Positions 53,835-58,876 of a DNA stretch of 64,000 bases are shown in pieces. The stretch is taken from contig NZ_KB898356.1 of the NCBI RefSeq assembly GCF_000377565.1, positions 124,001 through 188,000 on the forward strand. Reading direction: 5' to 3'. Positions within the stretch are counted from its first letter, which is position 1; each line of letters starts with the position of its first letter. Made by a program: the position numbers and the translations under genes. The stretch comes from Rhizobium sp. 2MFCol3.1 (GTDB taxonomy: Bacteria > Pseudomonadota > Alphaproteobacteria > Rhizobiales > Rhizobiaceae). The notes beneath the pieces were generated by a model that saw nothing but the letters and a program-made list of their open reading frames with translations, made no database searches and was not told the DNA's origin.

Positions 53835-55019
53835 TCAGGCCTTGATCTTGGAGAGCGCCTGCGCGAAATCCTCGATCAGGTCGTCGGTATCCTCGATACC
53901 AGCAGACAGGCGCACGGTGCCGGGCGAGATGCCGAGTTCGGCGCGGGCCTCGTCCGTCAGGTTCTTGTGCGTGGTCGTCGCCGGATGCGTGATCAGGCTC
54001 TTCGCGTCGCCGAGATTGTTGGAGATCTTGACGATCTCAAGCGCGTTCTGCAGCGCGAACGCCGCTTCCTTTCCGCCCTTGAGTTCGATCGCCACCAGCG
54101 TCGAGCCGCCCTTCATTTGGCTAGCGACGATATCGGCCTGCGGATGGTCCTTGCGGCCGGGATAGATCACCTTGGCGACCTGCTTCTGCTCGGCCAGGAA
54201 GTCGGCGATCTTGCCGGCGTTCTCGGTCTGCTGCTTGACGCGCAGCGGCAGCGTCTCGAGACCCTTGAGCAGCGTCCACGCCGTGAACGGCGACATGGCC
54301 GGACCGGTGTGGCGATAATAGTCCTGCAGATGCTCGTTGACCCACTCCGTATCCGAGAGGATCACGCCGCCGAGGCTGCGGCCCTGGCCGTCGATATGCT
54401 TGGTCGCGGAATAGACGACGATATGGGCGCCGAGTTCCAGCGGCTTCTGGAAGATCGGCGTCGCGAAAACGTTGTCGACCACAACCTTGGCGCCGACCTG
54501 GTTGGCGAGCTTGGCAACGCCGGCGATATCGACCACTTCGAGGGTTGGGTTGGTTGGGCTTTCCAGGAAGAACACCTTGGTATTCGGGCGGATCGCCTTT
54601 TCCCAGTTCTCCAGATGGCGGCCGTCGACCAGTGTGCACTCGATGCCGTATTTCGGCGCCAGCGTTTCGACAACCCAGCGGCAGGAACCGAAGAGCGCGC
54701 GGGCGGCAACGATGTGATCGCCGGCCTTCACCTGGCAGAGGATGGCGGCGGCAACGGCTGCCATGCCCGATGCGGTGGCGCGGGCTTCTTCCGCACCTTC
54801 CATGGCGCACATGCGCTTTTCGAACATGTCATTGGTCGGGCTGCCGTAGCGGGCGTAGATATAGCCCTCGGTCTCGCCCTTGAAGCGCGCCTCGGCGGCT
54901 TCCGCGCTGTCGTAGACAAACCCTTGCGTGAGATAGATCGCCTCGGAGGTCTCGCTATACTGCGAGCGCAGCGTTCCGCCGTGGACCAGTTGGGTTGCCG
55001 GGCGCCAAGTCTTGCTCAT
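53835..55019 (-). CDS. metZ: O-succinylhomoserine sulfhydrylase
   Basis: 394 residues of the Cys/Met-metabolism PLP family. It makes homocysteine from O-succinylhomoserine (or O-acetylhomoserine) and sulfide. Motifs include YARYGSPTNDMFEKRM, FLESPTNPTLEVVD and the Schiff-base lysine in VVYSATKHIDGQGRSLGG near residue 205. The start at 55019 lies 22 bases behind the riboswitch terminator. A seven-codon extension is possible. Placement behind a SAM-sensing leader supports the methionine role. Confidence 0.95.
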   Translation of the reverse strand: MSKTWRPATQLVHGGTLRSQYSETSEAIYLTQGFVYDSAEAAEARFKGETEGYIYARYGSPTNDMFEKRMCAMEGAEEARATASGMAAVAAAILCQVKAGDHIVAARALFGSCRWVVETLAPKYGIECTLVDGRHLENWEKAIRPNTKVFFLESPTNPTLEVVDIAGVAKLANQVGAKVVVDNVFATPIFQKPLELGAHIVVYSATKHIDGQGRSLGGVILSDTEWVNEHLQDYYRHTGPAMSPFTAWTLLKGLETLPLRVKQQTENAGKIADFLAEQKQVAKVIYPGRKDHPQADIVASQMKGGSTLVAIELKGGKEAAFALQNALEIVKISNNLGDAKSLITHPATTTHKNLTDEARAELGISPGTVRLSAGIEDTDDLIEDFAQALSKIKA

Positions 55020-55040
55020 GCCATCACCACTTTCAAACAC

Positions 55041-55071
55041 AAAAAAACCGGCCGCGAATGCAGACCGGTTT
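55041..55071 (-). terminator. riboswitch terminator of metZ
   Basis: On the minus strand AAACCGG pairs with CCGGTTT over a 17-base loop and is followed by TTTT. Its 5' arm overlaps the antiterminator stem AGACCGG/CCGGTCT (55062-55082), so the two are mutually exclusive. Confidence 0.75.
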
Positions 55072-55077
55072 CAACCC

Positions 55078-55132
55078 GGTCTATTTAGCCACTTGTTTAA
55101 CGTGGCTGCAAGCCGACCGGCCAAATCACCAC
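55078..55132 (-). ncRNA. SAM-II riboswitch aptamer (metA/metZ leader)
   Basis: The minus strand carries the SAM-II core: GTGATTTGGCC, the GGCTTGCAGCCACG stem-loop and pseudoknot strand TTAAACAAGTGGCTAAA. This class is found in alphaproteobacteria before metA, metX and metZ. SAM binding should favour the downstream terminator and lower metZ expression. Confidence 0.9.
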
Positions 55133-55215
55133 GGGATAAAGCTGCAATACTGCTGTTGCGCGCTTGCGTCAATTCCTCGATTTTGGTTTTGTCTGCGGCA
55201 AATTATGGATGGGGC

Positions 55216-56380: not shown

Positions 56381-56454
56381 GCGGGTGTAGCTCAATGGTA
56401 GAGCAGCAGCTTCCCAAGCTGAATACGAGGGTTCGATTCCCTTCACCCGCTCCA
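56381..56454 (+). tRNA. tRNA-Gly (anticodon CCC)
   Basis: Full tRNA-Gly: GCGGGTG acceptor, GTAGCTCAATGGTAGAGC D arm, anticodon loop TTCCCAA (anticodon CCC), GGGTTCGATTCCC T arm, and encoded CCA. Its 3' part is repeated at 58617-58652, marking an integration site. Confidence 0.95.
56408..56443 (+). repeat. attachment-site direct repeat, left copy (inside tRNA-Gly)
   Basis: 36 bases from the anticodon arm through the T arm of tRNA-Gly are identical to 58617-58652. This is the usual target of tyrosine recombinases, and the tRNA stays intact. Confidence 0.85.
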
Positions 56455-56496
56455 GCGATTTCAATAGCTTAGGTATATCGGCGTTTCACCGCCGTG

Positions 56497-56937
56497 TCAC
56501 TTGCACTTGGCGATGAGTGCGTCGGCAGCCTTGCGGCTGGCCTCAGGACCGTCGCCTTGGACGTACTTTTTTGTCATCTTCGTCGTCGTGTGGGTAGCGA
56601 GATCGCTAGCCATTTCGATAGAGCCCGTTGCTTGCACCGTCTCGGAAACGGCGCCAGCTCGGGTATCCATTGACCAGACGGTAGCAGGGACGCCAGCTGC
56701 GTCTCTCACTATCCGAAACTTGGCAGCATAACGGCTTTCCCAGTATGGCTTGCCATAGTCCTCGTCGATCACGACAGGGCCGATCTCTGGAACCGGCGCG
56801 AGTTGGCGCGATGATGAACACCGCGCGCCTGGGAGAAAACGCTCATGCGGCCTCCTCGGCGCAAACCGGGAGAGGAACACTCGCGGGCCAGTCGTGCGGC
56901 GCCATTGGTAGAGAGGTTCGTAGGGGTCGCTGCTCAT
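56497..56937 (-). pseudogene. tyrosine recombinase (integrase) remnant
   Basis: The open frame is 146 codons, but only the last 95 or so look like protein: GPVVIDEDYGKPYWESRYAAKFRIVRDAAGVP, MDTRAGAVSE, and THTTTKMTKKYVQGD, where the Tyr is the expected nucleophile. This matches the C-terminal catalytic domain of phage-type integrases. The R-x-x-R part and the whole N-terminal DNA-binding half are missing, and the first 50 codons read as unrelated Arg-rich sequence. It ends 43 bases from the tRNA. It is probably an inactive remnant of the integrase that inserted the element. Confidence 0.7.
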
Positions 56938-57064
56938 CGCAACAGCTTAGCGTGTGACTCTACGCCCGAAAAGCAGAACGATCGCCAGACGTCGATTGTC
57001 GCCTCACCCGGCTTCAAGCCATTGGTAGCGCTGGATCGTGGCATTCCGGCATGGAGTCCCATAT

Positions 57065-58429
57065 TCATTTCAGCAAGTCGGAAATTTTCAACGCCATCTG
57101 CTTCATAGGCTCGTAGTACTCGCCTCTTATAACCCTTTTCTCATCAAGCAGCCCTTTGACGGAGTTGGTGGCCTCGCGGGCCGGCTTTGTTCGCACATCT
57201 TTAGCCGGAATTGCCATAAAGTGAAATCTGGGGAAGCGATCGGCAAGCTTCGGCACCAGATCTTCCTTATCTCCATCCAAGATGCCAACGACTTTCTCGA
57301 AGCCTAAATCATCTAGGATTGAGGCGATCTTTTCCATTTTATCAGCGCCGCCGACACCCCATCCGAAGATCGCTCCACTCATGGCGACAGACAACTGGCC
57401 AAATACTTCGGGATAGAGAACCGCGTCCTCCTGGCCCTCGGTGAGAATGACGCCGTCTTCTTGGAAGAATAGCTCTCGCGCGCTCAGCCCGAGTACATGA
57501 GGATTGTTTATGTCTCTTATAAGCTTCGCGATAGCCGTTTTGGAAGCATTTGAAAGCTCATGGATCAACGTCCCTTCAGCCTCCTTGGTGGCGACTCGGA
57601 CGAGATGCGCACCATTGCCCAGTGCGGCGAGATCGACGAAATAAGGCGAGTGGGTGGAAATAACAATCTGGCGATCCTTGGCGTATTCCGCCAGCATTCG
57701 CGCGACTCTCTTTTGCAAGCTTGGATGGAGCGACAGTTCAGGTTCGTCGATCACCACCATGCTGCCGGGATCGCTGTCATAAAGTGCATCTACAATGGCG
57801 AAAACACTGACGATACCTTCTCCAAGGCCATCACTCGTGTGGGAGTGCTTTCCGCTAACAAACTTCAGGAAATAGGCGCCTGTGTCATTGAGGTCGATTG
57901 ACCATTTTGGCTCAAATCCAAGCACCTTCTTAAGCTCGTCATTGAAAGCGGCTTGATTACGTTCGATCTCGAAGAGACGCGATGAGAAGCTATCCAGTTG
58001 GCTAGACCTACTCGTTGGCAGGGGCGTGTTGTTAATATAGTTGGTTCGCGACATCTGGCCTTTGCCAAAGTGCGAATTGAACGCGCGGCGTGACTGCAGG
58101 ATAAATGCCTGAAACTCGTCATCTCGTGGACTTCGGGAGGTTTCGCTTGAGCCGGCCCGAATTGACGATAACGTCTCTATCACACCGTTGATGGTCATCT
58201 TAATGGTGACCTTATCTAGCTCGGCATTCCTCATGCCGGTCGTGAAGCTTGGCGTGTTATGTCCGGCTCTCGCCCGCAGGCATTCGATGATCGACGATTT
58301 TCCAGAATTATTGGAGCCTGTAATGACGGTCAGGCCACTCCCAACTTGACCGGTTGGCTGCGCGAATTCCATTGATTTTTCTGTCGTAAAGCCACGGTAG
58401 CCTTCGACAGTCAGTCTCTCTAAACCCAC
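57065..58429 (-). CDS. OLD-family ATP-dependent nuclease (ATPase-TOPRIM)
   Basis: 454 residues from the GTG at 58429, which follows GGAGG by eight bases (ATG at 58444 is the alternative). An SMC/RecF-like ATPase comes first: Walker A GSNNSGKSS near residue 40, signature-like SDGLGEG near 200, Walker B SMVVIDEPELSLHP near 230, and STHSPY. The C-terminal TOPRIM has the Glu in VILTEGQEDAVLY near 335 and DxD in GILDGDKED near 385. The best-known relative is P2 Old, a phage-exclusion nuclease. It is a single gene with no UvrD partner, so unlike Gabija, and is the main cargo of the tRNA-Gly island. Base composition is AT-richer than the flanks. Confidence 0.85.
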   Translation of the reverse strand: MGLERLTVEGYRGFTTEKSMEFAQPTGQVGSGLTVITGSNNSGKSSIIECLRARAGHNTPSFTTGMRNAELDKVTIKMTINGVIETLSSIRAGSSETSRSPRDDEFQAFILQSRRAFNSHFGKGQMSRTNYINNTPLPTSRSSQLDSFSSRLFEIERNQAAFNDELKKVLGFEPKWSIDLNDTGAYFLKFVSGKHSHTSDGLGEGIVSVFAIVDALYDSDPGSMVVIDEPELSLHPSLQKRVARMLAEYAKDRQIVISTHSPYFVDLAALGNGAHLVRVATKEAEGTLIHELSNASKTAIAKLIRDINNPHVLGLSARELFFQEDGVILTEGQEDAVLYPEVFGQLSVAMSGAIFGWGVGGADKMEKIASILDDLGFEKVVGILDGDKEDLVPKLADRFPRFHFMAIPAKDVRTKPAREATNSVKGLLDEKRVIRGEYYEPMKQMALKISDLLK

Positions 58430-58540
58430 GCTGCAATCCTCCATTGCCTAAGCTTAATCAAAATACTGTGCGTCAGCGATGAGTTGTATCCCTGATGTGA
58501 AGAATACTCTCAAGTGATATTTCCGAGTAATGCCCGTTTC

Positions 58541-58570
58541 AAAAACCTCGCCGGATTGTGTCCGGCGAGG
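58541..58570 (-). terminator. intrinsic terminator facing into the island
   Basis: CCTCGCCGGA and TCCGGCGAGG make a perfect 10-bp stem with a 5-base loop, and five T follow on the minus strand. It lies just upstream of the nuclease gene on its strand, so it may block readthrough into the island, or be the end of a lost gene. Confidence 0.7.
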
Positions 58571-58616
58571 TGATGTTTGAGTGAAACGCTGCGTTGAATT
58601 TGCTCAGGGTTCTCGA

Positions 58617-58652
58617 AGCTTCCCAAGCTGAATACGAGGGTTCGATTCCCTT
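58617..58652 (+). repeat. attachment-site direct repeat, right copy (partial tRNA-Gly)
   Basis: Identical to the 36 bases at 56408-56443. The tRNA-like sequence continues imperfectly for 12 more bases with one insertion and one substitution, and ends in the TCCA end. It cannot form a whole tRNA. Confidence 0.85.
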
Positions 58653-58876
58653 TCACGCGCTCCATTCCCGTCAAAAAATACGTGATCTTCGGCGCTTATT
58701 CGCGTCCGGCACCCGTGCGTCAAGACCCGCATCAACGCTCGACATCCCACACCCTAACGCTTTCCGTGTACTTGACGAATCCCTAACGAACGTGGTTAAT
58801 TTTTAACTATTCTCCGGTACATGGAACTTGGACGGCGCTCTGGCCGTTACTGGCGCACACGAGGAGGAATAGCGAA

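What the first reader, a model, noticed from the sequence alone, without database searches (positions are those of the whole stretch)
56381..58664. A 2.2-kb mini-island in tRNA-Gly(CCC) carrying one OLD-type nuclease
The sequence shows a 36-bp perfect direct repeat, one copy inside an intact tRNA-Gly and one 2.2 kb further on. Between them are an integrase C-terminal remnant beside the tRNA, an AT-richer ATPase-TOPRIM gene and an inward-facing terminator. Such small tRNA-bound elements are known to carry single defence genes. A compact integrative element reduced to its defence cargo is the simplest reading. Whether it is still mobile with help from another integrase is unknown.
Basis: partly seen in the sequence, partly recalled or inferred. 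Interest (0 to 1): 0.8.

Follow-up and report, generated by a model that had tools for sequence, protein, structure and literature searches.

The report
Tiny tRNA-bound island with one nuclease
A 2.2-kb piece of foreign DNA sits in a glycine tRNA gene of a bacterium; it is the worn-down remainder of a mobile element that keeps one intact gene, probably an anti-virus nuclease, and close relatives have an empty site or other cargo in the same place.

Summary
The 36-bp repeat is the only exact direct repeat of 24 bp or more in the window. tRNA-Gly(CCC) is found in 148 of 148 congeneric genomes, the OLD-type gene in 1 of 148 (E 1e-20), and a second copy of the tRNA 3' half downstream in 6 of 148. 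G105 and G106 have empty sites. G114 and G074 have related islands with other cargo; G074 keeps an open integrase gene whose last 98 residues match the window's remnant at 80%. A second integrase family lies near this tRNA in 7 of 148 genomes. The cargo is a stand-alone OLD-family ATPase-TOPRIM protein without a recurring partner gene. Defence is inferred, not shown. The island cannot move alone; both ends keep arm-like sequences shared with related elements, so help from another integrase is possible but untested. New member of a known kind: a decayed, CIME-like tRNA island.

The parts
56381..56454 (+). tRNA-Gly(CCC), intact; its 3' half is the left attachment core
   Evidence: ARAGORN; Rfam; found in 148 of 148 genus genomes
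56408..56443 (+). first copy of the 36-bp perfect direct repeat (left core, attL)
56455..56496 (+). left arm next to the core, with CGTTTCAC at 56482-56489
   Evidence: similar arm in G114, G074 and own-genome contig C14
56497..56796 (-). C-terminal end (98 codons matched) of a tyrosine-recombinase-type integrase; the first catalytic Arg region is missing, the putative Tyr is kept
   Evidence: 80% identity to residues 310-407 of the G074 integrase, E 2.9e-46; alignment; catalytic assignments are recalled, from no call
56793..56893 (-). about 100 bp not related to the integrase; 85% identical to a stretch of G050 contig 13 inside overlapping ORFs that look like a phage regulatory region
   Evidence: 'phage regulatory' is my reading of the ORFs, not searched
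57065..58444 (-). stand-alone OLD-family ATPase-TOPRIM protein, 459 aa, the only intact cargo gene seen
58535..58616 (+). right arm: nested inverted repeat (CGTTTCA ... CCTCGCCGG loop CCGGCGAGG ... GTGAAACG)
   Evidence: 80-85% identical in G105 contig 2, G074 and G041, shorter matches in G066 and G139; 83% on Rhizobium plasmid pT136b; fold z -6.7
58617..58664 (+). second copy of the tRNA 3' half (attR); 36 bp perfect, then with an inserted base and a substitution that G114 shares

Best explanation
The 2.2-kb segment is the decayed remainder of an integrative element (probably prophage- or phage-satellite-like) that entered tRNA-Gly(CCC) by tyrosine-recombinase recombination in the tRNA 3' half. 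It has lost all but about the last 98 codons of its integrase and nearly everything else. It keeps attL and attR with their arms and one intact gene. That gene encodes a stand-alone OLD-family ATPase-TOPRIM protein, which most likely acts as a single-gene anti-phage nuclease: the ABC-type ATPase responds to an infection-linked signal, and the TOPRIM domain then cuts nucleic acid (DNA, or a host tRNA as reported for P2 Old), stopping phage growth, probably at a cost to the cell. Shown here: insertion at the tRNA with a duplicated end, empty sites, alternative cargo, a truncated integrase, an open OLD-type gene with conserved active-site residues, no recurring partner gene. Inferred: the phage-like origin, the defence role, the trigger and the substrate.
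For: Empty sites in G105 and G106, joined at the tRNA end. Related islands with the same left end and a second repeat in G114 and G074, G074 with an open integrase gene. Remnant 80% identical to that integrase, dN 0.11 against dS 0.78 over 98 codons, which suggests that the gene was under selection for most of their separation. OLD gene in 1 of 148 genus genomes. PADLOC's Old model matches at 2.8e-23, through the TOPRIM region. Model mean pLDDT 92.5; best PDB match Thermus OLD 6p74: Foldseek E 3.2e-15, VIA Z 21.5, rmsd 4.6, 369 residues over model residues 6-458. K48, D232, E233, H264, E335, D339 and D389 (458-aa numbering; add 1 for the full protein) in 40 of 40 aligned homologues. Neighbours of homologues include type I restriction, Mrr, TIR, Schlafen, SAVED-linked effectors and phage tail genes. 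The nearest relative found, 68% identical over residues 1-363 (cut by the contig end), lies 72 bp after a tail tape-measure gene in a viral contig.
Against: Defence was not tested, and no tested close relative was found; identity to Thermus OLD is about 20% and Foldseek superposes the whole chain poorly (rmsd 13.9, TM 0.53). PADLOC's best model is AriA (1.2e-25), ahead of Old. D391 of the DxD pair is D in only 22 of 40 and N in 12 of 40, so the TOPRIM chemistry may vary in the family. SMC heads score Z up to 20.3, though over the ATPase only. No phage record encodes a relative at E 1e-5. The neighbour scans had no background control, so enrichment of defence or phage genes was not measured.
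Confidence: 0.75

Rival explanations
1. The island is a non-autonomous but still mobilisable cassette (CIME- or MITE-like): the integrase 3' end and the right palindromic arm are kept as attachment arms, and a related integrase in trans or a newly arriving element moves it.
For: GTGAAACG occurs 3 times in 64 kb, and 2 of these lie in the two arms, 27 bases after the tRNA and 28 bases before the right core. The right arm is 80-85% identical in G105, G074 and G041 and 83% on a Rhizobium plasmid. G000 and G114 share the same decayed attR but hold different cargo, and their left arms agree at 241 of 300 against 252 of 260 for attR plus the non-coding right flank, Fisher p 3.9e-10.
Against: The remnant is the only match to this integrase in the own genome at E 1e-20. 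The intergenic stretch just upstream of the tRNA also differs between G000 and G114 (57 of 69 identical), so the left-arm divergence is not clean proof of exchange. The total count of GTGAAACG is what chance gives (2.07 expected). attR has an inserted base and a substitution.
Confidence: 0.25
2. G000 and G114 inherit one ancestral, larger island and each kept a different gene after separate deletions; nothing has moved since.
For: Shared derived attR variant in G000 and G114; among the genomes compared G114 is G000's nearest on the dcd side (96.9%) and ties with G119 on the right (95.1%); both integrases are truncated.
Against: Left arms differ by 20% while attR plus the non-coding right flank differs by 3%. 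G000 and G114 are not sisters in either flank tree, though support there is weak.
Confidence: 0.3
3. The ATPase-TOPRIM gene is not a defence gene but a DNA-repair, cell-cycle or element-maintenance ATPase carried along.
For: Some OLD proteins have other roles: the start of the abstract of PMC12796447 (search listing only) describes an archaeal class needed for cell-cycle progression. The TOPRIM domain of YbjD is dispensable for its anti-phage phenotype (PMC13261556).
Against: Patchy distribution, 1 of 148 in the genus; phage tail, restriction and SAVED-linked neighbours of some homologues; placement on a mobile remnant.
Confidence: 0.15

Closest known systems
CIME (cis-mobilizable element): decayed ICE or IME that keeps attL and attR (PMC5704250, one passage read)
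   Same: Flanking direct repeats, no working integrase, no transfer genes seen, att ends kept.
   Different: Only 2.2 kb and one intact gene; traces look phage-like rather than ICE-like; cis-mobilisation not tested.
Class 1 OLD proteins (P2 Old, Thermus scotoductus OLD, E. coli YbjD) (PMC10568477, passages; PMC13261556, part 1 of 2)
   Same: ABC ATPase plus C-terminal TOPRIM, single gene without GajB-like helicase or reverse transcriptase, sometimes phage-borne.
   Different: 459 aa against 528 for the Thermus OLD chain and 552 for YbjD; about 20% identity to Thermus OLD; a conserved FGWGxGGA stretch in the TOPRIM region (consensus).
Defence hotspots of P2-like prophages and P4-like satellites (PMC9122126, listing and start of abstract only)
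   Same: Small variable defence cargo at a fixed site of a mobile element; two homologues of this OLD lie within about 1.5 kb of baseplate genes.
   Different: Here the carrier has decayed and no structural or replication gene remains.
Tycheposons and other phage satellites (named in PMC11389934, one passage read)
   Same: From recall: integrase-driven insertion at tRNA genes with exchangeable cargo.
   Different: Not compared by sequence; this island has no intact integrase.

Membership tests
tRNA-integrated genomic island | Direct repeat of the tRNA 3' end at both ends | tested here: met
tRNA-integrated genomic island | Empty site in relatives | tested here: met
   G105 and G106
tRNA-integrated genomic island | Intact integrase gene next to the tRNA | tested here: not met
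   Only a 98-codon remnant here; an open gene of the same family is in the related island of G074. So: a decayed island
CIME | attL and attR kept, integration and transfer genes lost | tested here: met
   the ORF list shows no further long ORF between the repeats besides the OLD gene and the remnant
CIME | Can be mobilised in cis by another element | not testable with these tools
   needs an excision assay
Class 1 OLD | ABC-type ATPase with a C-terminal TOPRIM domain | tested here: met
   AAA_21 5.5e-26, OLD-like_TOPRIM just below its cut-off; PADLOC Old 2.8e-23; model match to 6p74 across both domains; profile match through the TOPRIM acidic residues
Class 1 OLD | Single gene, no UvrD-like helicase or reverse transcriptase partner | tested here: met
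   No other long ORF in the island; in 64 homologue neighbourhoods the commonest neighbour cluster is in 5; no Pfam family in more than 3 of 145 neighbour proteins (only the first 25 of 123 families shown)
Class 1 OLD | Dimerisation domain inserted in the ATPase | tested here: inconclusive
   Model has only short elements between residues 100 and 180; not superposed residue by residue
Class 1 OLD | Groups with P2 Old and Thermus OLD in a tree | not tested
   no tree of the OLD family was built
Class 1 OLD | Nuclease activity and phage restriction | not testable with these tools
   bench test needed
Gabija (class 2 OLD) | Adjacent GajB helicase | tested here: not met
   No such ORF in the island; the left flank gene is a dCTP deaminase
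Retron (class 3 OLD) | Adjacent reverse transcriptase and ncRNA | tested here: not met
   No reverse-transcriptase-sized ORF in the island; Rfam finds no retron RNA in the window
PARIS | AriB (DUF4435) with an AriA-type ATPase | tested here: not met
   The ATPase part matches PADLOC AriA best (1.2e-25), but it is one gene with an OLD-like TOPRIM and no DUF4435 match at E up to 1

The most novel reading that the evidence does not exclude
tRNA-Gly(CCC) in these bacteria serves as a cassette-exchange dock: minimal non-autonomous elements of 1-3 kb, defined only by a left arm (the integrase 3' end) and a right palindromic arm, swap single cargo genes by recombination at the shared core, using integrases supplied by related elements, and one such cassette is a single-gene OLD-type defence system of a separate, widespread ~460-aa subfamily.
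Probability: 0.2. Interest if true: 0.65.

Novelty: new member of a known kind. Interest (0 to 1): 0.42.

Why it matters
It is a clean example of how little of a mobile element can be left around one intact cargo gene, with empty and differently filled sites in close relatives. The review read in passages (PMC10568477) names as open whether a class 1 OLD protein alone gives broad phage defence; a natural single-gene island makes that directly testable. The site is a hotspot used by at least two integrase families in one genus.

Tried and rejected
Chance repeat or tRNA duplication: rejected, since the 36-bp repeat is unique in the window and the second copy is not a tRNA.

Vertical inheritance of the OLD gene: rejected (1 of 148 in the genus at E 1e-20; 2 of 397 in the order at E 1e-15; own genome counted in both).

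Gabija, retron or PARIS: rejected for lack of the partner genes, although PADLOC's best single model is AriA.

A recurring partner gene for this OLD subfamily: none in 64 neighbourhoods (65 loci, one duplicate, L118, dropped), nor in Pfam, PADLOC and PHROGs scans of 145 of 154 selected neighbour proteins from 42 loci at 40% identity or more. Those scans show only the first 25 families, so rarer hits were not seen, and there was no background control.

Larger islands with the same right arm: G041 and G066 hold a right-arm match 97 and 75 kb downstream of the tRNA, but there the core is followed by non-tRNA sequence, so I did not count them as islands at this tRNA. Looking for the pre-insertion site of the G105 right arm gave matches in G106 and G114 that begin 187 bases into the flank and settled nothing.

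Flank trees do not make G000 and G114 sisters, and the intergenic stretch upstream of the tRNA is also divergent, so cargo exchange is left as a rival.

Searches that led nowhere: relatives of the OLD protein with the single sequence in genome contigs and viral contigs and in phages; NCBIfam, all matches far below cut-off; PADLOC for cargo of G114 and G092; sigma-70-type promoters in the island (0 found). One of the two integrases tried, G082's, had no PHROGs match, and G074's had no Pfam match. Paper searches on small tRNA islands listed none that I recognised by title or abstract start as this island; one search matched 56,212 papers and only 8 were listed. I make no claim that it is unpublished.
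Full report
Observation. The window holds one intact tRNA-Gly(CCC) at 56381-56454. A 36-bp stretch of it, 56408-56443, recurs perfectly at 58617-58652; extended to the tRNA 3' end the copies are 95.8% identical, with one inserted base in the second. No other exact direct repeat of 24 bp or more exists in the 64 kb. Between the copies the longest ORFs are one of 459 codons (57065-58444, minus) and one of 146 codons (56497-56937, minus). G+C is 51.6% for the first against 62.0% for the window; 5 of 627 windows of that length are as low.

Empty and filled sites. The tRNA's left flank is found in 148 of 148 genomes of the genus, own included, and ARAGORN finds tRNA-Gly(CCC) in the stretch taken from each. 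In G105 and G106 the tRNA is joined directly to the sequence that follows the second repeat in the window: empty sites. G132 also lacks the insert but keeps about 11 bases like the island's left end. Of the 148, 6 have a second copy (20 or more identical bases) of the tRNA 3' half downstream: G000 (2.2 kb), G114 (1.3 kb), G074 (3.0 kb), G084 (0.24 kb), G022 (10.0 kb) and G092 (8.2 kb). The stretch examined was at least 10 kb for 131 of 148, 2.5-10 kb for 11 and shorter for 6, so larger islands are not counted.

Related islands. G114 and G074 share the window's left end at 80-81% over 295 and 340 bp; at the right end G074 agrees at 84% over 82 bp and G114 at 87% over 31 bp. G114 carries a 260-aa ORF without a significant family match and a truncated integrase. 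G074 carries an open integrase frame of 418 codons. That protein has no Pfam match; it matches the PHROGs integrase family at 3e-9, while its relative from G082 matches none; 5 of 50,697 phage records encode relatives at 23-31% identity, two of them annotated as integrase or recombinase. The window's remnant equals residues 310-407 of the 408 used (80% identity, E 2.9e-46) and is the only match in its own genome at E 1e-20. Between remnant and open gene dN is 0.11 and dS 0.78 over 98 codons, which suggests that the truncation is young compared with their separation. In the genus, 6 of 148 genomes hold a near full-length protein of this family at 71-100% identity, one with an internal stop; 4 of these 6 lie beside tRNA-Gly(TCC).

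A hotspot. A second integrase family, taken from G092, is found in 7 of 148 genomes at E 1e-60: G092, G022 (in two pieces), G050, G133, G065, G139 and G042. By coordinates it lies within about 1.3 kb of tRNA-Gly(CCC) in all 7. G119 has an unrelated 1.1-kb stretch without a repeat at this place.

Ends. The left arm carries CGTTTCAC 27 bases after the tRNA, and the right arm carries GTGAAACG 28 bases before the core. The 8-mer occurs 3 times in 64 kb against 2.07 expected, so its number is not unusual; its place is suggestive. The right arm, a nested palindrome (fold z -6.7), is conserved at 80-85% in G105 contig 2, G074 and G041, with shorter matches in G066 and G139 (6 of 148 genomes with a match, own included), and at 83% on a Rhizobium plasmid. 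In these except G074 the core (CTTCCCAAGCTG) is followed by sequence that is not tRNA. Own-genome contig C14 has the mirror case: unrelated DNA, then the core, the tRNA 3' half, a left arm and a degraded integrase end. I read these as att sites of related elements at non-tRNA targets, unproven.

G000 and G114 share a decayed second repeat with the same insertion and substitution. Repeat plus non-coding right flank agree at 252 of 260 aligned positions, yet the left arms agree at only 241 of 300 (Fisher p 3.9e-10), and the cargo differs. This suggests exchange of the element at an occupied site. Against it, 69 aligned intergenic positions upstream of the tRNA agree at only 57, and flank trees do not resolve the relation.

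The cargo protein. Pfam gives AAA_21 at 5.5e-26 and OLD-like_TOPRIM at 1.8e-4, just below its cut-off. PADLOC's best models are AriA (1.2e-25) and Old (2.8e-23); PHROGs has families of unknown function at 8e-24. Close relatives are rare: 1 of 148 in the genus, 2 of 397 in the order, 1 of 72,556 plasmid records at E 1e-10, 0 of 50,697 phage records at E 1e-5. Of the 65 loci whose ORF I measured, 49 encode 450-500 aa. A 40-sequence alignment gave a model with mean pLDDT 92.5. The best solved match is Thermus OLD, 6p74 (Foldseek E 3.2e-15, TM 0.53, rmsd 13.9; VIA Z 21.5, rmsd 4.6, 369 residues), the only one of the 50 rows that runs past residue 331; SMC heads reach Z 20.3 on the ATPase. The profile aligns the acidic TOPRIM residues with those of Thermus OLD. 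Walker A Lys, Walker B Asp-Glu, the H-loop His, and TOPRIM E335, D339 and D389 are in 40 of 40; D391 in 22 of 40 (numbering of the 458-aa translation, add 1 for the full protein; motif names recalled).

Neighbours of the family. In 64 neighbourhoods the commonest neighbour cluster, serine-recombinase-like by eye, is in 5, and a type I restriction-like one in 4. Among 145 neighbour proteins no Pfam family is in more than 3; the families shown include type I restriction, Mrr, TIR, Schlafen, a SAVED-linked effector domain, phage integrase and baseplate proteins. The 68% relative follows a tail tape-measure gene. The protein thus looks like a stand-alone accessory gene of prophages and defence regions; no background was measured.

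How it likely works. By the OLD review (PMC10568477, passages) and the YbjD paper (PMC13261556, part 1 of 2), OLD proteins join an ABC ATPase to a TOPRIM nuclease; class 1 members are single genes; P2 Old is set off by RecBC inhibition and is reported to cut a host tRNA. I infer a similar single-protein abortive defence here. The trigger and substrate are unknown.

Verdict. Carrier: a CIME-like decayed tRNA island (definition from PMC5704250, one passage), not shown to be mobile. Cargo: a class-1-like OLD protein of a ~460-aa subfamily. Known kinds, in an unusually small combination.

Noticed in passing
55064-55142 (-): SAM_alpha riboswitch (Rfam RF00521, 81 bits) just upstream of the ORF at 53835-55040 (-), which looks by eye like a methionine-pathway enzyme.
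   Followed up: no
L079 11834-12097 (own genome contig C14): A second decayed left end of the same element family at a non-tRNA site: unrelated flank, core, tRNA 3' half, left arm, degraded integrase end.
   Followed up: partly
L388, L390, L391, L392, L386: The element's right arm and core occur at other genomic places and on a Rhizobium plasmid, followed by non-tRNA sequence; in G105 an ORF that looks integrase-like by eye lies just inside the arm.
   Followed up: partly
L133, L134, L135, L140: Four homologues of the OLD protein, in actinobacterial contigs by their titles, have open frames of 637-740 aa, i.e. about 180-280 more residues, at the N-terminal side; a fused domain could hint at a partner or sensor, or the start is misplaced.
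   Followed up: no
L382 8102-11895 (G092): An 8.2-kb island of the second integrase family at the same tRNA carries 255-aa and 963-aa ORFs without a PADLOC match at E 0.01; may be unknown cargo.
   Followed up: partly
L075 (G084), 240 bp after the tRNA: A short second copy of the tRNA 3' half with little between: possible scar of a lost island.
   Followed up: no
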